A stretch of DNA of 64,000 bases from IMG/VR virus record IMGVR_UViG_3300037475_000211, positions 1-64,000 of that record, one strand, 5' to 3'. The position numbers and the translations under genes were made by a program. Positions within the stretch are counted from its first letter, which is position 1, and every line of letters starts with the position of its first letter. Source of the stretch: a virus. The notes beneath the pieces are model-generated. The model was given only the letters and a program-made list of their open reading frames with translations. It had not been told where the DNA came from and searched no databases. Positions 14,655 to 63,546 of this stretch are shown piece after piece.

Positions 14655-15761
14655 ATGTCAAACTGGGAACCACAAGTAGTAAAAATAGAAAAAGTAATTC
14701 ATCATCCTAATGGTGATGCTTTAGATATTGCTTATGTTCTAGGAGATTATCCAGTTGTTGTACGACGAGGCGAATATAAAGTTGATGATTTAGCGGCGTA
14801 TTTACAAGTTGATACGATAACTCCTGACACAAATCAATTTTATTTTTTATGTCCAAAGGAATATGAAAAATATCTAGATGGTGATGAAATTAAACAAAGA
14901 CAAATAGGTCCAAAATATCCTGTCGGTTCTGTTCCAGAAAAATATAGAGTTCTTAAGGCAAAGAAAATAAGAAATTTCTATTCAGAAGGAATGTTAGTTC
15001 CAGTACCAATTGTTAAACCTATACCTTTATCTTTAGGAGATTCAGTTGTAGAAGCTTTATCTCTTAAAAAATATGAGGAAGAAAACGAAGAGAATCTACC
15101 TAATGTATTTAAAGCTAAAGGAACTAATGCTGCCCCACCGCCAAAAGGTTGGAGCATTCCGTATTATGACCTTGAAAATGTTAGGAAATATATTAAGTGT
15201 GTTGAAGAAGAAAAAGATATTATTCTTACTGAAAAATTGAATGGTAGTAACGCCTCATTTTGTTTTGATGGCAATGATTTAGTTGTTAAGTCTCGTAACT
15301 ATTATAAAAAATTAGATGAAGAAGATGATATGTGGATCGAGCTTGCTACAAGATTAAATCTAAAAGAGAAGCTATCTAAATATCCTATGATGGTTTTGTT
15401 TGGAGAATGTATTAATCAAGTAAAGGGATTTAGATATCACACCAATTTAGTTGATGGTAAGTTATTAACAAATCTTATTTGTTTTGATATCTTTGATGTT
15501 AAAGCTGGAAAGTATTTAGACTATGATGACTTTATCACGATAATAAAAGATCTAGATTTAGAATCTGCACCTTTGTTATATAGAGGTCCTTGGACTTCAA
15601 AAGAGGAAATGTATTCTTTTGCCGAAGGTAAATCTATTTTAAATGATAAAATAGTTAGAGAAGGATGGGTCCTTTCATTAGGTAAGGAAAGATTTGAGCC
15701 GAAACTTAATTCTAGATGTAAATTAAAATTAATTGGAGAAGGTTATAATTTATCAAAATGA
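14655..15761 (+). CDS. RNA ligase, Rnl5 (DraRnl) family, 368 aa
   Basis: The N-terminal OB-fold-like region (residues 5-125: HHPNGDALDIAYVLG ... EGMLVPVP) precedes an adenylyltransferase domain. Motif I is EKLNGS with the AMP-accepting Lys194; motif III LFGECIN; motif IV REGWVLS; motif V KCKLKL-like (SRCKLKLIGEG). This order, OB domain first and ligase second, is that of Deinococcus RNA ligase, which seals nicked RNA with 3'-OH and 5'-phosphate ends. A role in repairing cleaved tRNA is inferred, supported by cREC (19066) and the tRNA genes. Confidence 0.9.
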   Translation: MSNWEPQVVKIEKVIHHPNGDALDIAYVLGDYPVVVRRGEYKVDDLAAYLQVDTITPDTNQFYFLCPKEYEKYLDGDEIKQRQIGPKYPVGSVPEKYRVLKAKKIRNFYSEGMLVPVPIVKPIPLSLGDSVVEALSLKKYEEENEENLPNVFKAKGTNAAPPPKGWSIPYYDLENVRKYIKCVEEEKDIILTEKLNGSNASFCFDGNDLVVKSRNYYKKLDEEDDMWIELATRLNLKEKLSKYPMMVLFGECINQVKGFRYHTNLVDGKLLTNLICFDIFDVKAGKYLDYDDFITIIKDLDLESAPLLYRGPWTSKEEMYSFAEGKSILNDKIVREGWVLSLGKERFEPKLNSRCKLKLIGEGYNLSK

Positions 15762-33700: not shown

Positions 33701-34162
33701 ATGCCATACACTTTGGTGGTTGTAGATTTCCAATATGAGTTTAAAGCTTCTCGCAAACGTAAGACGATTGAAGCTTGTAAAAATGCCATTATTAAAGCCA
33801 TTAATGATGAGGCTGTCATTGTATTTTTAGAATATATTGGTTGTGGTCGTACAATGAAATCATTATTTAATTTAGTTGATACTTATGAATCAGTTCATTT
33901 TATTCGTAAAGTTGGATGTGACGGTTCTTTAGAAATTAAAGTTATTGAAAATATGTTAGCTACTGAGCACTTCAGGGTTTGCGGTGTTAATACTGATGCT
34001 TGTGTTGAAGAAACTGTTTTAGGTCTTAATTCAGAGTATCCAGAAGCGGTTATAGAAGTGTTAGAACAAGCTTGTAACTCTGATTTAAGTCATGAACAAG
34101 GCATTTTAAATATGCTTGCTTGTAAGCAAGTAGTGATTAATAAGTCACCAATTAAGTTATGA
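33701..34162 (+). CDS. isochorismatase-fold cysteine hydrolase, 153 aa
   Basis: Triad positions of the family are visible: Asp9 in LVVVDFQ, Lys70 in HFIRKVG, and Cys101 in VCGVNTDACVEET. The short length (family usually 180-220) gives a minimal enzyme. Members hydrolyse nicotinamide, isochorismate or related amides; a nicotinamidase-like role would match the NAD genes in this window but is not proven. The start is set at 33701; an upstream frame open from 33608 lacks a ribosome site. Confidence 0.75.
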   Translation: MPYTLVVVDFQYEFKASRKRKTIEACKNAIIKAINDEAVIVFLEYIGCGRTMKSLFNLVDTYESVHFIRKVGCDGSLEIKVIENMLATEHFRVCGVNTDACVEETVLGLNSEYPEAVIEVLEQACNSDLSHEQGILNMLACKQVVINKSPIKL

Positions 34163-37628: not shown

Positions 37629-38789
37629 ATGTCGATTCAACAATTACTAGATATTCCATTTCGAACATTCATTTATACAACAGGTTGCGGCGCTGGTATC
37701 CAAAATAAACTTTGGAAATTACCTGGATGCTCTTCGTTTTTAGCTGGCTGTGGTTTTCCATATGCTCCCGAGTTAACATCTGAAGTTATTGGATATACTC
37801 CAAGTAAGTTTGTTTCTAAAGAAACTGCTATTGAATTAGCAATGTCAGCGTATATGAAAGCATTTGATGCTAGTAAATCAGATATGAATGTAATTGGTAT
37901 TGGTTTATCTGGTTCAGTAGCATCGGCTATTGAGCATAGAGGGGATCATAGGTTGTATGTAGCAGCTGTTCATAACAAAGGTTGTGATGTTACTTACGTT
38001 AAACTATCTAAAGGTAGTGGTGCTATTAAACGAGAAGAAGATGGTGATATTTCCAATTCTTTAATTTTAAAAACTCTATATGGTGTTCTTGGTCTAGAAG
38101 ATAAGATGATGTTTAAATGGTCTTATCAAGGATCTTGTTATACTCCAGAAATTGAATTATCAGAAGAGTCTGAGTTACTTTATTCCTTAATTCAAGAACG
38201 ACCATTTTTTAAATCAGATGGCAGCAAGTGTTCTAGCCCAGAATTCTTTTCTGGAGAAGATTATTCAAATTATGTTTTTTATCCAGGTAGTTTTAATCCA
38301 CTTCACTATGGACACCTGAATGCTAAGAAGGCTGCATTTAATGCAGCGGTTCATTTAAATAATGATATAAAGGATACTATTTTTACGACTTGTGTTAATC
38401 CTCCGCATAAAAATAAACTATCTTCTGTTGAAATTTTACAAAGAATTAAGCAGATGCGCGGACAAAATTTTCTATTAACTTGGGACGATCCATATTATAC
38501 TCACAAAGCAAAGATGTTTCCAGGGAGCAATATTATTATAGGAACAGATGTTTTGTTATCGATATTTGATCCTAAATGGAATCTTGATCCAATAGAGATG
38601 CTTAATTCTTTTAAAGAAAATAGAGTTAGATTTTTAGTTCGAGGAAGACTTATCGATGGTAAGTTTATTAGTTTAGCTGATTGTAGGGCACAAATAAAAT
38701 TATTAAATGATAATAATTATTATAATTTGTTTGCTCATGTTGATGGTAGAGATGATATTTCTTCTACTGAATTAAGAAATAAAAAATGA
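37629..38789 (+). CDS. nadD: fusion of CinA/PncC-like domain and NadD-like adenylyltransferase, 386 aa
   Basis: Residues 1-170 resemble the CinA C-terminal domain, NMN deamidase (PncC): TTGCGAG, LPGCSSFLAGC, VSKETAIELAMSAY, IGIGLSGSVAS, HRGDHRLYVA. Residues 215-386 are a nicotinate/nicotinamide mononucleotide adenylyltransferase: FYPGSFNPLHYGHL with HxGH at 226-229 and the late ISSTELR (377-383). Together they could convert NMN to NaMN and then adenylate it, or adenylate NMN directly. Strong leader AAAAAGG. A rare domain pairing. Confidence 0.85.
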   Translation: MSIQQLLDIPFRTFIYTTGCGAGIQNKLWKLPGCSSFLAGCGFPYAPELTSEVIGYTPSKFVSKETAIELAMSAYMKAFDASKSDMNVIGIGLSGSVASAIEHRGDHRLYVAAVHNKGCDVTYVKLSKGSGAIKREEDGDISNSLILKTLYGVLGLEDKMMFKWSYQGSCYTPEIELSEESELLYSLIQERPFFKSDGSKCSSPEFFSGEDYSNYVFYPGSFNPLHYGHLNAKKAAFNAAVHLNNDIKDTIFTTCVNPPHKNKLSSVEILQRIKQMRGQNFLLTWDDPYYTHKAKMFPGSNIIIGTDVLLSIFDPKWNLDPIEMLNSFKENRVRFLVRGRLIDGKFISLADCRAQIKLLNDNNYYNLFAHVDGRDDISSTELRNKK

Positions 38790-39934: not shown

Positions 39935-40306
39935 ATGAAACAAAGTAAGAATATTAATTTAATATTTATCAATGTTGTGGCGGCTTCTTTATTAGCTGGC
40001 TGTTCTACACCACAAGATAATAAGCAATGTGTTGATGAAAATGGTGTAGTGATTGATGAATCTAATTGTAATCCTGATAGTGTTGGTTATAGCCCTCACT
40101 ATCGCTGGTATTATGGTGGAGGTTTGTTTAATAGGGGCATGCGAGTAAATGGTGGCAGCTATTATCCTAACAATGGTCGTTCTTATGTAACACCTTCACA
40201 AAGAGCTATTTCTGGTGGAGAAAGTGTTTCTGGAGGATCGAAAGTATCTTCTCCAATTAGTCGTGGTGGATTTGGAACAACCGGGCATTCTTCAGGCGGA
40301 GAATAA
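39935..40306 (+). CDS. YgiB-like (DUF1190-type) lipoprotein, 123 aa
   Basis: Lipoprotein signal ending LLAGCS (Cys23). The mature part has paired cysteines (QCVDENG, SNCNPD), a Tyr/Gly-rich segment (YRWYYGGGLF) and a Ser/Gly-rich tail ending GFGTTGHSSGGE. In enterobacteria ygiB (DUF1190) stands directly before ygiC, and here a YgiC-like synthetase follows. The name rests on context and composition more than on sequence. Confidence 0.65.
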   Translation: MKQSKNINLIFINVVAASLLAGCSTPQDNKQCVDENGVVIDESNCNPDSVGYSPHYRWYYGGGLFNRGMRVNGGSYYPNNGRSYVTPSQRAISGGESVSGGSKVSSPISRGGFGTTGHSSGGE

Positions 40307-40307
40307 G

Positions 40308-41456
40308 ATGTTAAGAAAAACTACTTCTGTAAGAAAAAATTGGGAAAAGACTATTGAATCTCAAGGGTTTTTATTTCATTCAGTTGAAGGTAAACCTTAT
40401 TGGGATGAGTCTGCATATTATGAGTTTACTTCTGCACAAGTAGATGAATTAGAAGCTGCTACTAATACTTTACATGAGATGTGTTTAGCTGCTGTACAGC
40501 ACGTTATTGACAACAAACTATATGCTAAGCTTCATATTCCTGAATGGGCAATTCCTTTAATTGAATATTCTTGGAACAACGAAACACCTGCTATTTATGG
40601 TCGATTTGATTTTTCTTATGATGGAAAATCTTCTCCCAAGATGTTAGAGTATAATGCGGACACTCCGACTTCTTTATTAGAGTCTGGTGTTATTCAGTGG
40701 TTTTGGATGAAGGATAAGTTTCCTGCCGCCGATCAATTTAATTCTATTCATGAAAAATTGGTTGCCAAATGGACTGAGTTAAAAGACTATTTGAATTTTG
40801 GTCCCTTATATTTTACTGGACTTGATATGATTGAAGACTATATGAATCTTCAATATATGATGGAGACTGCTAAGCAAGGTGGACTTGAAGTAAAGGAAAT
40901 TAATATTGCCGATATTGGTTGGCATAATATTGATCAAAAGTTTATTGATAATGAGTACTATACCATTACTAATATGTTTAAACTTTATCCTTGGGAGTGG
41001 TTATTGCATGAAGAATTTGGCAAAAACATTGCAGCATGCTTTGATAAGACTTTTTGGATTGAACCACCATGGAAACTTATCCTTTCTAATAAAGGAATTC
41101 TACCTATTTTATGGGAATTAAATCCAAATCATCCTAACTTGTTGCCGGCATTCTTTGATAAGAATCCTGCTCTTGGAGATAAATTTATTACAAAACCGCT
41201 TTATTCTCGTGAAGGTTCTAATATAACTATTTTTGATGAATCTTCTAAAGAGCTAAAGGTGATGGAAACTGATGGTGAATATGGTGAAGAAGGAGTTATC
41301 TTCCAAAAGTTTGCACCATTAGCTGATTTTGATGGCAATCATCCAATGATTGGTAGTTGGGTGATTGATGGAGTTTCGGCTGGTATTGGTATCAGAGAAG
41401 ATAAGACTTTGATTACTGGAAATTTTAGTCGCTTTGTTCCGCACATCTTTAAATAA
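40308..41456 (+). CDS. glutathionylspermidine synthase-family ATP-grasp protein (YgiC-like), 382 aa
   Basis: Recognisable GSP-synthase strings: GRFDFSYDGKSSPKMLEYNA, DTPTSLLESGVIQW, WIEPPWKLILSNKGILPILW, HPNLLPAFF, KPLYSREGSNI, and QKFAPLADFDG-H-MIGSWV near the end. These are the ATP-grasp C-terminal domain shared by Gss and YgiC/YjfC. It lacks the amidase domain. It would join an amine and a carboxylate using ATP; the substrate is unknown. Start set at 40308. Confidence 0.85.
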   Translation: MLRKTTSVRKNWEKTIESQGFLFHSVEGKPYWDESAYYEFTSAQVDELEAATNTLHEMCLAAVQHVIDNKLYAKLHIPEWAIPLIEYSWNNETPAIYGRFDFSYDGKSSPKMLEYNADTPTSLLESGVIQWFWMKDKFPAADQFNSIHEKLVAKWTELKDYLNFGPLYFTGLDMIEDYMNLQYMMETAKQGGLEVKEINIADIGWHNIDQKFIDNEYYTITNMFKLYPWEWLLHEEFGKNIAACFDKTFWIEPPWKLILSNKGILPILWELNPNHPNLLPAFFDKNPALGDKFITKPLYSREGSNITIFDESSKELKVMETDGEYGEEGVIFQKFAPLADFDGNHPMIGSWVIDGVSAGIGIREDKTLITGNFSRFVPHIFK

Positions 41457-43724: not shown

Positions 43725-44465
43725 ATGAGTTGTTTAAATTGTAGTGAATTAATTAAGTGTAAGCATTGTTATGATAAAGAACGATATTTAAAAATAAAAG
43801 AGGGTAGTTGGAAATTCAATCCAACACCACCAAATCATTTAACTGATGTTCAAGAGCAAGTTTTAATAGGCGGTCTTTTAGGAGATTTACACTTATATCA
43901 ATATAAGAATCAAATAAACTCAGGTATTGCTGTAGGTCGCTCAATTAAAGATAAAGAATATTTAGAATATCAATTTAATTTGTTCAAAGGTTTTTGTTCA
44001 TCAGGAATTAAAATTAGAGATACTTTTGACAAAAGAACTAATAAAAAATACAGTGGATGTTCTTTTAGAACACAAGTGGCTCCCATTTTTCAATCATTTA
44101 AAAATAAATGGTATCCTAATAATATTAAAACTATTCCTTTAGATTTAAAATTAACTCCAAAGATATGTGCTATCTGGTTTTGTGATGATGGTAGTGTTAA
44201 TAATGTTTCTAAAAGTGGAAGAATAACTTTATCTTTATATACTGATGGCTTTCTTAAAAAAGAAGTAGAGTTTTTAAGAGACATTCTAAATAAAGAATTA
44301 GATAGTAATTTTAAAATTGGTAAGAAAAATTCTACTAAAGATCCAGATAAAGGATATTATATGTGTGGACAACATGAAAGCTCAATGAAATTGATTAAAT
44401 ATATGAAACCAGAATTTCCTATCTCTATGAGTCGAAAGTCTGATAAATGGAAAGGTTTAATTTAA
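43725..44465 (+). CDS. LAGLIDADG homing endonuclease, 246 aa
   Basis: Two LAGLIDADG-type helices: VLIGGLLGDLHLY near residue 46 and ICAIWFCDDGSVN near residue 145, as in LAGLIDADG_2 enzymes. An N-terminal CLNCSELIKCKHC adds a zinc knuckle. Unlike the other four endonucleases it is on the + strand, in an intergenic gap. Confidence 0.9.
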   Translation: MSCLNCSELIKCKHCYDKERYLKIKEGSWKFNPTPPNHLTDVQEQVLIGGLLGDLHLYQYKNQINSGIAVGRSIKDKEYLEYQFNLFKGFCSSGIKIRDTFDKRTNKKYSGCSFRTQVAPIFQSFKNKWYPNNIKTIPLDLKLTPKICAIWFCDDGSVNNVSKSGRITLSLYTDGFLKKEVEFLRDILNKELDSNFKIGKKNSTKDPDKGYYMCGQHESSMKLIKYMKPEFPISMSRKSDKWKGLI

Positions 44466-46244: not shown

Positions 46245-46823
46245 ATGAAAGGTTTAAGATTTTTAAAACAATGTGAACATTATCCACAAAGTGTTTTCAT
46301 ACATGATGGTGTAGAATATTTTGCAAGTGATGCTGATAATGTTTTCTCTTTTAAAGGAGATTTGGTCGTCAATTTAACGCTTGAACCGGGAATTAGAACA
46401 CTTGGTACGGCATATAATATTCCGGAGCTATCTTCTCATCTAATTAATTTGCCATCAGAGTTAGTTTTAGCTTGGCCAGATATGTCTAGCCCACCAGTAA
46501 AAACTTCTTTTTGGGAAGCTTTTCATCTTTATTGTAAAAAGAAAAAATATAAAAAAGTTTTATTCCATTGTCATCATGGTCATGGAAGAACTGGCACCGC
46601 CTTATGTGCAATGCAAATTTCTTTGTTAAAGAAAAAGGCTGATTCTGCTATTAGAAGTATAAGAAGAACATACTGTAATCATGCAGTTGAGTCACCAAAT
46701 CAAATTCAATATCTAATCTTTTTAGATGAAGATTTAAATAATAGAAAATATCCAGAGGATGAGATTGAGTTTGAAAAATTAATTAATGATTTAAGCTCTT
46801 TAAGAGGAAATAAAAAAATATAA
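46245..46823 (+). CDS. dual-specificity protein phosphatase, 192 aa
   Basis: Catalytic loop HCHHGHGRTGT with Cys109 and Arg115, preceded by KKVLFHC and by a general-acid region around residues 77-82 (WPDMSS). Followed by helices with RSIRRTYCNHAVESPNQIQY as in PTP-like phosphatases. It could act on phosphotyrosine, phosphoserine or RNA ends. A kinase-like gene is at 58921. Confidence 0.85.
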   Translation: MKGLRFLKQCEHYPQSVFIHDGVEYFASDADNVFSFKGDLVVNLTLEPGIRTLGTAYNIPELSSHLINLPSELVLAWPDMSSPPVKTSFWEAFHLYCKKKKYKKVLFHCHHGHGRTGTALCAMQISLLKKKADSAIRSIRRTYCNHAVESPNQIQYLIFLDEDLNNRKYPEDEIEFEKLINDLSSLRGNKKI

Positions 46824-52612: not shown

Positions 52613-53026
52613 ATGAATCAAGCAGCAGTTATGTTAGTCTTAAATGAAGAAGGTAAAATTTTGTCGGTTGCACGCCGTAATAACCCAACTAAATTTGGAC
52701 TACCAGGCGGTAAAAAGAATGAATGGGAAACTGATTATTTGGCAGCAGTAAGAGAAACAATGGAAGAGACTTCAATTAAAGTTACTGGCTGCACTGAAAT
52801 TTATGTTAGAGTTGAGCCCAAAGATTCTCCTGATGGAGAAGATTTTAATACTCATTGCTTTTATGCTCTTACTTGGAAAGGCACACCGACTTCTTCTGAA
52901 GAAGGTGAAGTAAAGTGGCTAACATCTGCCGAGTTAACTTCTTCTGAGCATGGAGCGTTTCCAGATTATAATGCAAAGACCCTAGAAGTTTTTAAATCAA
53001 AATATCCGAATGTTAAAATTTTATGA
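52613..53026 (+). CDS. Nudix hydrolase, 137 aa
   Basis: Nudix box LPGGKKNEWETDYLAAVRET followed by MEETSI: the spacing G-x5-E-x7-R-E-x2-E-E holds, although the usual Gly after EE-T is Ser. An N-terminal strand AAVMLVLNEEGKILSVARRN is normal. It cleaves a nucleoside diphosphate linked to X. Starts after AAGGAAA. Confidence 0.85.
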   Translation: MNQAAVMLVLNEEGKILSVARRNNPTKFGLPGGKKNEWETDYLAAVRETMEETSIKVTGCTEIYVRVEPKDSPDGEDFNTHCFYALTWKGTPTSSEEGEVKWLTSAELTSSEHGAFPDYNAKTLEVFKSKYPNVKIL

Positions 53027-55436: not shown

Positions 55437-56156
55437 ATGATAAGTGGAGTAAAGTATGTTGTTGATTCAAGCAATAGTAAAATTGCTGGTTCAAATAAAG
55501 TTGATAGTACTTATGCTTCAATTGAAGCATCATGTTCTTCAGCCTGCCCGCTGAAGCAGGGAGAATGTTACGCCCAAAATTCATTTACAGGCTTTCATGT
55601 TAGAAAATTAGATGAAGCTTCAAAAGGAAAGTCACCATTACAAATAGCAAGACAAGAGGCTGCTTCTATAAATGACTCTTATAATGGAAAGAAAATTCCA
55701 GCAGGCAGGGATTTAAGGATTCATGTATCTGGTGATTCAAGAACCATTCAAGGTACAAGATTAATTAATAAAGCTGTTGGGAATTGGAAACTTAGGGGAG
55801 GGAATGATGTTTGGACATATACTCATTCATGGAGGCATGTTCCAAGAAAAGAATGGAGCAATGTTTCTATTTTAGCTTCTGTTGATTCTATTAAAGATGT
55901 TAATGCAGCAAGAAAGCAAGGTTATGCGCCAGCCTTAATAGTAGCAGAACATATTTCAGATAAAGCTTATTCTTTACCAGAATCAAAGATAAAATGGATT
56001 CCATGTCCCAATCAGACTAAAGAAGATGTTAGTTGCTCATCATGCCGATTATGTTTTAATGCAGACAGGTTATTTCAAGGACATTATGGAATTGCCTTTG
56101 CTGCCCACGGGATTAATAAGAATAAAATTAAAAGAAGATTAGCAGTCATCCAATGA
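55437..56156 (+). CDS. GP88-like / DUF7227-like protein, 239 aa
   Basis: Two cysteine clusters: SCSSACPLKQGECYA at the start and VSCSSCRLCFNADRL near the end. Between them RIHVSGDSRTIQG, VWTYTHSWRHVPRKEW and SILASVDSIKD. This order (C-x3-C-P ... CYA, RxHVSGD, TYTH) characterises a phage/plasmid family (gp88-like) of unknown biochemical role; the cysteines might hold a metal or iron-sulfur cluster. Confidence 0.75.
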   Translation: MISGVKYVVDSSNSKIAGSNKVDSTYASIEASCSSACPLKQGECYAQNSFTGFHVRKLDEASKGKSPLQIARQEAASINDSYNGKKIPAGRDLRIHVSGDSRTIQGTRLINKAVGNWKLRGGNDVWTYTHSWRHVPRKEWSNVSILASVDSIKDVNAARKQGYAPALIVAEHISDKAYSLPESKIKWIPCPNQTKEDVSCSSCRLCFNADRLFQGHYGIAFAAHGINKNKIKRRLAVIQ

Positions 56157-56659
56157 AGTCTAAAGATACTTTTTGCAGTTACTGTGGTAATATTTTTAAT
56201 CCAAATCAAATTTATCCCAAAGTTTGTTTGAGTTGTGCCAATATAACTTATAATAATCCTTTAGCAGTTACAGCAACGGTTATTCCAGTTATAGATTATT
56301 TAAATGATAATCGTCATGGAGTCCTGGTAGTAAAAAGAAACATTGAACCTAAGAAAGGTCAATGGGCATTACCTGGAGGATTTCTTGAACAAGGAGAGTC
56401 TTGGAAAGAAGGCGCAGCAAGAGAAGTGTTTGAAGAAACAGGTTTAGATTTAAACAATAATGAATTTGGATTACTTTCTGTAGAGACTGCGTCTAATGGA
56501 AATCTAATAATATTATGTGATTGTGGTGCAATCAATTTATCTGAAATTGATTTTCATTCTAATGAAGAGGTTACTGAAATTAAAGTAATATATGAGTTCG
56601 AAGAATTAGCTTTTCCAACTCATACTGAAGCTCTGCGACTTATGTTAATGCCAGAATAA
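56153..56659 (+). CDS. Nudix hydrolase with N-terminal zinc ribbon, 168 aa
   Basis: FCSYCGNIF ... KVCLSCANI is a four-Cys ribbon, followed by YNNPLAV as in NudC-type enzymes. The Nudix box is perfect: GGFLEQGESWKEGAAREVFE then ETGLDL. Candidate substrates are NADH, ADP-ribose or capped RNA. The NAD genes elsewhere in the window support an NAD-related role, but this is inference. Overlaps the previous gene (ATGA). Confidence 0.85.
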   Translation: MKSKDTFCSYCGNIFNPNQIYPKVCLSCANITYNNPLAVTATVIPVIDYLNDNRHGVLVVKRNIEPKKGQWALPGGFLEQGESWKEGAAREVFEETGLDLNNNEFGLLSVETASNGNLIILCDCGAINLSEIDFHSNEEVTEIKVIYEFEELAFPTHTEALRLMLMPE

Positions 56660-62231: not shown

Positions 62232-62653
62232 AAGTAAAGTGTCCCATTTGTGCAACATGGTTGACTAAGAAATCAATCAATGTTTATTGGAACTATGAAA
62301 CAATACACAACTCATTAGTTTGCAATAATTGTGTTAAAAAACAGGGCTATTCATTTAGGGTAGAATTAAGTCAATTTTATGAAAATGATCCTTATTCATC
62401 ATTAACAATGTCATTTTTGCATAAGAAATTTTACTGTAGTGGAATTATAACAAATTATAAAAACAATAAAATAGATATTTCTTTTTATGTACAAAGCAAA
62501 TTATATGGTGGCTTAGAAGATATTACATATAGAAAAAAATTCTCATTTAATGATCTATGCGATCAAAATATAGACATTTTAGATTATAATGAAGTATATT
62601 GGCTCTTTAAAAAGGAAGCTTGTCGTTGGGCTAAGTTACAATTATTTTCATAA
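62228..62653 (+). CDS. zinc-ribbon protein with diverged LQLFS tail, 141 aa
   Basis: KCPICATWLT ... LVCNNCVKKQG gives a four-cysteine ribbon, then a beta-rich body (FYCSGIITNYKNNKIDISFY) and the end RWAKLQLFS. It links the zinc-ribbon class with the tail motif. Overlaps neighbours at both ends. Confidence 0.7.
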   Translation: MKVKCPICATWLTKKSINVYWNYETIHNSLVCNNCVKKQGYSFRVELSQFYENDPYSSLTMSFLHKKFYCSGIITNYKNNKIDISFYVQSKLYGGLEDITYRKKFSFNDLCDQNIDILDYNEVYWLFKKEACRWAKLQLFS

Positions 62654-62667
62654 TGAATAGGGTTTAT

Positions 62668-63546
62668 ATGGATAAAATATTACTAATTGATGGTCATAAT
62701 CAAATGTGGAGAGCTAATACTACGTTTGGTCCTCCTATTCAACATGAATCTAAAGGCGATAAATGCGCATGTAAATCACCATGGGACATTCAAGATAACT
62801 TTTGTTATGGCGAAAGATATGGTTTAGTTTTTAATTTCTTTAGAAATTTAAGACCACTTATTGAAGCATTTGAACCAAACAAATGTTTCTTTGTATTAGA
62901 GGGTCATCCTCAATTTAGATATGATTTGTTTCCTGACTATAAAGCAAATAGAATTGTAAAACAAGGCTCTTCTTCAAAAAAAGAAGTTTTATATAAATTT
63001 GAAATTATAATCAATTTACTTCAGTATTTACCAATAACATTGGTTAGAGCTTCCAATTATGAATGCGATGATGTTATTGCAACTTTAGCTGAAAATCTAA
63101 AAGATGAAGACGTTACTATTTTGAGTAATGATTCAGATTATATTCAGCTCTTACAAAAGAGTTTTAAAAAATTAACCATTTATAATCCTATTAAGAAAGT
63201 TGATATGGAATCTCCAACATATCCTTATGTTGCTTGGAAGTGTTTGGCAGGTGATAAATCAGACAATATTCCCTCCCTATTAACGCCGAAGAAAGTTATG
63301 AAGTGTATGGAGGATCCTATAGCATTTGAGGCTTTTCTTTCGACCGAAGAAAACAGAGCTAATTTTAATATTAATCGTCAATTAATAGAATTTAGATCTG
63401 TGCCAGAAGATGAGATATCTTTAGTTGAGGGCATAACAAATTTTGCTGCTCTTAAGCTAGAATTTTCTAAAATGAAATTCGAATCAATTGTAAATGATAA
63501 AAGTTGGGAAAAGTTTACAAATAGTTTTAATTCAATTAAGTTTTAA
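62668..63546 (+). CDS. 5'-3' exonuclease / flap endonuclease, 292 aa
   Basis: PIN/FEN motifs: ILLIDGHNQMW with Asp8, CFFVLEGHPQFRYDLFPDYK, ASNYECDDVIATLA, ILSNDSDY, and the helix-hairpin-helix region CLAGDKSDNIPSLL. Related to T4 RNase H and Pol I 5'-nuclease, which remove RNA primers and flaps. Start set at 62668 after AGGGTT; 62653 is also possible. The only clear DNA-replication gene here. Confidence 0.85.
   Translation: MDKILLIDGHNQMWRANTTFGPPIQHESKGDKCACKSPWDIQDNFCYGERYGLVFNFFRNLRPLIEAFEPNKCFFVLEGHPQFRYDLFPDYKANRIVKQGSSSKKEVLYKFEIIINLLQYLPITLVRASNYECDDVIATLAENLKDEDVTILSNDSDYIQLLQKSFKKLTIYNPIKKVDMESPTYPYVAWKCLAGDKSDNIPSLLTPKKVMKCMEDPIAFEAFLSTEENRANFNINRQLIEFRSVPEDEISLVEGITNFAALKLEFSKMKFESIVNDKSWEKFTNSFNSIKF

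What the first reader, a model, noticed from the sequence alone, without database searches (positions are those of the whole stretch)
37629..38789. Phage PncC-NadD fusion: two NAD steps in one polypeptide
A CinA/PncC-like domain and an NMN adenylyltransferase with intact HxGH and ISSTELR are joined. Together with the isochorismatase-fold hydrolase (33701) and a NudC-like Nudix enzyme (56153), this suggests control of host NAD during infection. Many bacterial defence systems kill by NAD depletion, and phage NAD-restoring pathways are known, so a counter-defence role is a reasonable hypothesis.
Basis: partly seen in the sequence, partly recalled or inferred. Interest (0 to 1): 0.75.

Follow-up and report, generated by a model that had tools for sequence, protein, structure and literature searches.

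The report
Phage NAD-making enzyme, dead-looking deamidase domain
A huge phage carries a two-part protein that probably makes the coenzyme NAD: one half is an intact NAD-building enzyme, the other looks like an NMN-converting enzyme that kept its binding pocket but lost its catalytic lysine; related phages keep the gene beside their own nicotinamide-recycling enzyme, so it looks like an undescribed part of phage NAD salvage.

Summary
In detail: 37629-38789 encodes one 386-aa protein, a CinA/PncC-fold domain joined to an NMNAT/NadD-type nucleotidyltransferase with intact HxGH and ISSTELR (AF2 pLDDT 94.7; Foldseek and profiles agree). The fusion is not a phage invention: the same architecture occurs in many bacterial phyla and in about 20 phage lineages, including contigs of 230-512 kb. 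"Two NAD steps" is unlikely as stated: across 100 homologues the PncC general-base lysine is never kept and the nucleophilic serine is not conserved, while the NMN-phosphate-binding residues (G, S, Y, R) are essentially invariant. The NMNAT half keeps all hallmark motifs. The new evidence is genomic: 20 of 28 phage records with this unit carry NAMPT (NadV), in many right beside it, sometimes as an NrtR-NAMPT-fusion operon, usually with no NadM or NadR. The best reading is a third kind of phage NMNAT serving nicotinamide salvage (NARP2-like), carrying a deamidase-dead, probably nucleotide-binding PncC-like domain. The window record (67 kb fragment) shows no NAMPT; its closest relative (447 kb, 57% identity) has NAMPT plus NadM-Nudix 80 kb away, so a redundant or different role is possible. 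Counter-defence is plausible, untested.

The parts
37629..38789 (+). Whole gene: 386-aa CinA/PncC-like + NMNAT-like fusion protein
   Evidence: ORF; full-length homologues; model pLDDT 94.7
37659..38165 (+). N-terminal CinA/PncC-fold domain (about residues 11-179)
37680..37682 (+). Thr18, position of PncC nucleophile Ser31 (T/S/A/G in the family)
   Evidence: residue role from PMC5384747; the register is sure only to one residue
37725..37733 (+). G-x-S (G33, S35): positions of PncC phosphate-binding G46/S48, invariant where aligned
37761..37763 (+). Tyr45: position of PncC phosphate-binding Tyr58, kept in 98 of 100
37776..37778 (+). Thr50: position of PncC general-base Lys63; Lys in 0 of 100 homologues
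37938..37952 (+). RGDHR: family-specific [RK]-G-x-H-[RK] motif replacing the PncC TGIAGPxGG...PVG loop
38031..38033 (+). Arg135: position of PncC phosphate-binding Arg145, 100 of 100
38166..38264 (+). Linker with a phage-typical DGxR/P segment
38265..38786 (+). C-terminal NMNAT/NadD-type nucleotidyltransferase domain
38304..38315 (+). HxGH nucleotidyltransferase motif (H226-H229), invariant His
38541..38549 (+). GxD motif (G305-D307), invariant
38757..38777 (+). ISSTELR motif (I377-R383)

Best explanation
The gene encodes a phage member of a widespread, undescribed bacterial/phage family: an NMN (or NaMN) adenylyltransferase fused behind a PncC-fold domain that still looks built to bind a pyridine mononucleotide phosphate but is very unlikely to deamidate NMN by the known Ser/Lys mechanism. 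In phages it serves as the NMNAT step of nicotinamide salvage: phage NAMPT (NadV) makes NMN from nicotinamide + PRPP, and the C-terminal domain joins NMN to the AMP of ATP to give NAD+. The N-domain most likely holds NMN/NaMN (or a related nucleotide) for sensing, gating or hand-over. Shown: fold and domain order, motif retention and loss, family distribution, NAMPT/NrtR linkage in relatives. Inferred: substrate, direction, binding role of the N-domain, presence of NAMPT in the window's own (incompletely sequenced) phage, any defence-related benefit.
For: Intact HxGH, GxD, ISSTxxR across 100 homologues; best profile and PDB matches are NadD/NMNAT, best non-CinA fold match is human NMNAT1. PncC phosphate-binding G46/S48/Y58/R145 positions kept in 98-100 of 100, K63 in 0 of 100. 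NAMPT family PF04095 in 20 of 28 phage records with the unit, against NadV in 33% of jumbo phages in a published survey (PMC9503650). Direct neighbours: NrtR-NAMPT-fusion in L091, L099 and L142, NAMPT-fusion in L084 and L089, NAMPT beside the split pair in L100; 8 of 14 records of 50 kb or more have NAMPT within 5 kb versus 1.1 expected by uniform placement (relatedness not corrected). The linked enzyme is NAMPT rather than NAPRT by PDB match (human and bacterial NAMPT, E 1e-137 to 1e-163). NadM found only in G019 and G005, a NadM-like gene in G018, NadR in none, so in most NAMPT-bearing records this unit is the only NMNAT detected.
Against: The window record itself has no NAMPT (67-kb fragment). 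Its closest relative G019 already has an adjacent NadM-Nudix + NAMPT pair 80 kb from the fusion, and a 485-kb relative (G001) has no NAMPT. Cellular carriers have no NAMPT (0 of 18) and usually a separate NadD (12 of 16), so the ancestral role need not be nicotinamide salvage. No enzyme activity is known to me for any member.
Confidence: 0.6

Rival explanations
1. One reading: a bifunctional PncC-NadD enzyme that first deamidates NMN to NaMN and then adenylylates NaMN to NaAD, two NAD steps in one chain.
For: Both folds are present; a hydroxyl residue sits at the Ser31 position in most members, Thr in 18 of 21 viral ones, and Thr/Ser is mostly kept at the Thr105 position.
Against: General-base Lys63 absent in 100 of 100; Ser31 position is Ala or Gly in 18 of the 98 aligned; K63A and S31A are inactive in AtCinA (PMC5384747). 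NAMPT already makes NMN, which NMNAT can use directly; deamidation would call for NadE as well.
Confidence: 0.1
2. The unit makes a dinucleotide other than NAD, or adenylylates a different nucleotide or metabolite; its presence beside NadM/NAMPT and beside cellular NadD reflects a distinct reaction.
For: Coexists with NadM-Nudix in G019 and G005 and with canonical NadD in 12 of 16 bacterial genomes; no NAMPT in 18 of 18 cellular carriers; strongly conserved family-specific RGxHR motif.
Against: NadD/NMNAT-type motifs intact; phage linkage to NAMPT and NrtR.
Confidence: 0.2
3. An ordinary accessory metabolic gene that boosts NAD for large-phage replication, with no relation to NAD-depleting immunity.
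For: Linked to the ADPR-responsive regulator family NrtR, a regulator of metabolic NAD; no adjacent known anti-defence gene was seen.
Against: Published work ties phage NAD-reconstitution (NARP1/NARP2) to countering NAD depletion (PMC12043709, PMC12028318); not exclusive of a metabolic role.
Confidence: 0.3

Closest known systems
NMN deamidase PncC / CinA C-terminal domain (PF02464; AtCinA 2A9S, TtCinA 4CT8, E. coli PncC)
   Same: Fold, order of elements, phosphate-binding G/S/Y/R positions
   Different: No Lys general base, no conserved Ser nucleophile, ESCTGG motif and TGIAGP loop replaced; fused to an NMNAT rather than to a MocF/COG1058 domain or standing alone
NadD/NMNAT (TIGR00482, PF01467; B. 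subtilis NadD 1KAM, human NMNAT1 1KKU)
   Same: HxGH, GxD, ISSTxxR, fold
   Different: Far below the equivalog cut-off (30 vs 112 bits); fused to the PncC-like domain; coexists with housekeeping NadD in 12 of 16 bacterial carriers
Phage NAD salvage NadV + NadM/NadR, and NARP2 (Iyer 2021, 2022; NARP2 known here from citing papers and memory only)
   Same: NAMPT plus a HIGH-superfamily NMNAT in jumbo phages, here with NrtR in several operons
   Different: NMNAT partner is a PncC-like fusion, not the Nudix fusion (NadM) or the kinase fusion (NadR); CinA and PncC are not mentioned in either survey (word search of the main text)
Uncharacterised CinA-like + nucleotidyltransferase family of Planctomycetota, Gammaproteobacteria (incl. 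SAR86), Chloroflexota, Gemmatimonadota, Latescibacterota, Trueperaceae (L004-L083)
   Same: Full-length homology, same domain order, same residue pattern
   Different: Phage clade on its own long branch; cellular carriers lack NAMPT

Membership tests
NMN deamidase (PncC) | CinA/PncC fold | tested here: met
   Foldseek prob 1.00 to 2A9S, 4CT8, 6MR3; profile match
NMN deamidase (PncC) | Ser31-Lys63 catalytic dyad | tested here: not met
   Lys 0 of 100; Ser position T/S/A/G (mapping; roles PMC5384747)
NMN deamidase (PncC) | NMN phosphate-binding G46, S48, Y58, R145 | tested here: met
   98-100 of 100 conserved; Arg register
NMN deamidase (PncC) | NMN to NaMN activity | not testable with these tools
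   needs enzyme assay
NMN/NaMN adenylyltransferase (NMNAT, NadD) | H/TxGH and ISSTxxR motifs | tested here: met
   both His in 100 of 100; second Ser in 100 of 100
NMN/NaMN adenylyltransferase (NMNAT, NadD) | Curated equivalog score (TIGR00482, 112.45 bits) | tested here: not met
   30 bits
NMN/NaMN adenylyltransferase (NMNAT, NadD) | Fold | tested here: met
   human NMNAT1 1KKU prob 1.00; NadD 1KAM profile E=8e-8
NMN/NaMN adenylyltransferase (NMNAT, NadD) | Preference for NMN or NaMN, activity | not testable with these tools
   needs enzyme assay
NARP2-type phage pathway (NAMPT + NMNAT) | NAMPT and NMNAT in the same phage | tested here: inconclusive
   Not in the 67-kb window record; present in the 447-kb sister and in 20 of 28 records
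NARP2-type phage pathway (NAMPT + NMNAT) | Restores NAD+ under NAD-depleting defence | not testable with these tools
   needs infection experiments
NadM / NadR | NMNAT fused to Nudix (NadM) or kinase (NadR) | tested here: not met
   partner domain is CinA-fold
Classical bifunctional CinA | N-terminal MocF/COG1058 pyrophosphatase domain | tested here: not met
   Pfam shows none; the CinA-fold domain starts near residue 11

The most novel reading that the evidence does not exclude
The PncC-like domain is a nucleotide sensor or has a new chemistry, so that the family makes or proofreads a pyridine dinucleotide by a route not yet described, kept by diverse bacteria alongside NadD and recruited by huge phages next to NAMPT and the ADPR-responsive regulator NrtR.
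Probability: 0.25. Interest if true: 0.8.

Novelty: new variant of a known kind. Interest (0 to 1): 0.55.

Why it matters
Published surveys list two phage NMNATs (NadM, NadR) and describe jumbo phages with NadV but no NMNAT. This family gives a candidate for that missing step and an annotated route from nicotinamide to NAD+ in huge phages. It also marks a broad bacterial family, not covered by any curated NCBIfam equivalog tried here, whose PncC-like half keeps the ligand pocket without the known catalytic dyad. Both points are directly testable with one purified protein.

Tried and rejected
Direct homologue search of viral contigs with the single protein gave nothing, plasmids nothing, and a genome scan with the two-sequence alignment nothing. 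My recollection that plants carry the same architecture (At2g01220) could not be tested: no eukaryote collection, no paper hit. PMC13036487 (NMNAT-C of cyanobacteria) looked relevant but its NMNAT is not described there as this fusion. A regex for canonical PncC in host loci found none; CinA-like host proteins were aligned instead and E. coli PncC was fetched. The Pfam terminase model missed most records; phrog_2 did better, 9 of 22. The careful tree did not finish; the quick tree is used. The idea that the isochorismatase gene belongs to the module was rejected: only G000 and G019 have it among 11 records. A nicotinamidase reading of it was judged unlikely because the metal-binding His residues I know from PncA are not seen (from sequence and memory, not tested by alignment). 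The primary NARP1/NARP2 paper is not held in the library.

Full report
What is there. The ORF at 37629-38789 (+) encodes 386 aa. The window is most of a 67,329-bp IMG/VR virus record, evidently a fragment of a much larger phage: its closest relative by this protein is a 447,763-bp viral contig (G019, locus L104) with 57% identity and the same local gene order, namely isochorismatase, a cupin-like gene (PHROG cysteine dioxygenase), M50 peptidase, fusion, small ORF, glutathionylspermidine-synthase-like ATP-grasp. G019 has a TerL match.

Domains. The C-terminal half matches PF01467 above its gathering score and NadD/NMNAT models first among named enzymes. The N-terminal half is CinA-like only weakly for this protein, but 38 of 43 homologous N-domains hit PF02464, the family profile finds 2A9S and 4CT8 in the PDB, and profile-profile comparison aligns it end to end with CinA-like host proteins. 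AlphaFold2 on a 51-row alignment gave pLDDT 94.7 and pTM 0.92; Foldseek finds CinA/PncC chains and human NMNAT1. BFVD holds one near-full-length viral relative, annotated only as cytidyltransferase-like.

Not a phage invention. In a quick tree 17 phage proteins, window included, form one supported group (SH-aLRT 100) on a long stem; three divergent viral proteins fall elsewhere with long branches and unsure places. Outside IMG/VR only two uncultured, unannotated phage records match.

The PncC half. In Agrobacterium CinA, S31 and K63 are catalytic, and G46, S48, Y58 and R145 hold the NMN phosphate (PMC5384747). Mapped through the HMM and hhalign alignments, the phosphate-binding positions are G33, S35, Y45, R135 in the window and are kept in 98-100 of 100 homologues; K63 corresponds to T50 and is Lys in none; S31 corresponds to T18 and is Thr, Ser, Ala or Gly. 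The S31 register is sure to within one residue because hhalign places a gap nearby; neither neighbouring column is an invariant Ser. A new [RK]-G-x-H-[RK] motif replaces the TGIAGP loop. So the pocket for a nucleotide phosphate appears kept and the known deamidase chemistry lost. A different chemistry cannot be excluded.

The NMNAT half. Both His of HxGH, the GxD pair and the second Ser of ISSTxxR are invariant in 100 of 100, the final Arg nearly so. Activity is inferred from this, not shown.

Genomic context. NAMPT/NAPRT family PF04095 occurs in 20 of 28 virus records with the fusion or its split form. The linked enzyme is NAMPT: the L099 protein matches human and bacterial NAMPT structures at E 1e-137 to 1e-163, and NF006629 at up to 1e-187 (NCBI names that model nicotinate phosphoribosyltransferase). 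L091, L099 and L142 have NrtR-like regulator, NAMPT and fusion in a row, in L099 with overlapping genes; L084 and L089 have NAMPT one gene upstream; in L100, L102, L108 and L112 the two domains are separate neighbouring genes, with NAMPT nearby in the first three. Among 14 records of 50 kb or more, 8 have NAMPT within 5 kb against 1.1 expected by uniform placement; shared ancestry makes the true number of independent events smaller. NadM is full length only in G019 and G005, NadM-like in G018, and NadR is not found. A published survey names NadV, NadM and NadR as the phage NAD-salvage enzymes, with NadV in 33% of jumbo phages (PMC9503650), and notes jumbo phages with NadV alone (PMC7824862).

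Limits. In the window's own small clade NAMPT is unlinked (G019, G020, G023, G004) or not found (G014, G003); in G019 NAMPT sits next to a NadM-Nudix gene. Cellular carriers lack NAMPT (0 of 18) and mostly have their own NadD (12 of 16). So for the window's phage the salvage role is an inference from relatives, and a distinct reaction remains possible.

Verdict. Observation confirmed; interpretation partly supported. Best reading: a third architecture of phage NMNAT for nicotinamide salvage with a deamidase-dead PncC-like domain. Rough confidence (inference): folds 0.97, NMNAT-type activity 0.8, no deamidation 0.75, nicotinamide salvage in this phage 0.55, counter-defence role 0.35.

Noticed in passing
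L102:8001-9907; L100:6044-9094; L112:7938-9090: Phages with the two domains as separate adjacent or overlapping genes, beside NAMPT and (L102) a NadM-Nudix-like gene: possible ancestral or split state of the fusion.
   Followed up: partly
L130:2084-4595 (447-kb phage G019): Adjacent NadM-Nudix and NAMPT genes, a complete NARP2-like pair, in the phage most similar to the window.
   Followed up: yes
window 56153-56659 and 52613-53026: Two Nudix proteins; the first has an N-terminal zinc ribbon and 40-44% relatives in three other fusion-bearing phages.
   Followed up: partly
window 33701-34162: Isochorismatase-fold cysteine hydrolase, found only in the closest relative among 10 other phage records; substrate unknown.
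   Followed up: partly
window 40299-41456: Strong glutathionylspermidine-synthase-like ATP-grasp (PF03738, E=2e-149), conserved in G019.
   Followed up: no
window 46245-46823: Protein-tyrosine / dual-specificity phosphatase-like gene (PF00102), conserved in G019.
   Followed up: no
window 14655-15761; 43725-44465; 62653-63546: RNA ligase, LAGLIDADG endonuclease and 5'-3' exonuclease N-domain; three tRNA genes in the window.
   Followed up: no
G036 (SAR86A), G039, G035: No canonical NadD above cut-off in these fusion-bearing bacterial genomes; the fusion could be their NaMN/NMN adenylyltransferase, or the genomes are incomplete.
   Followed up: no
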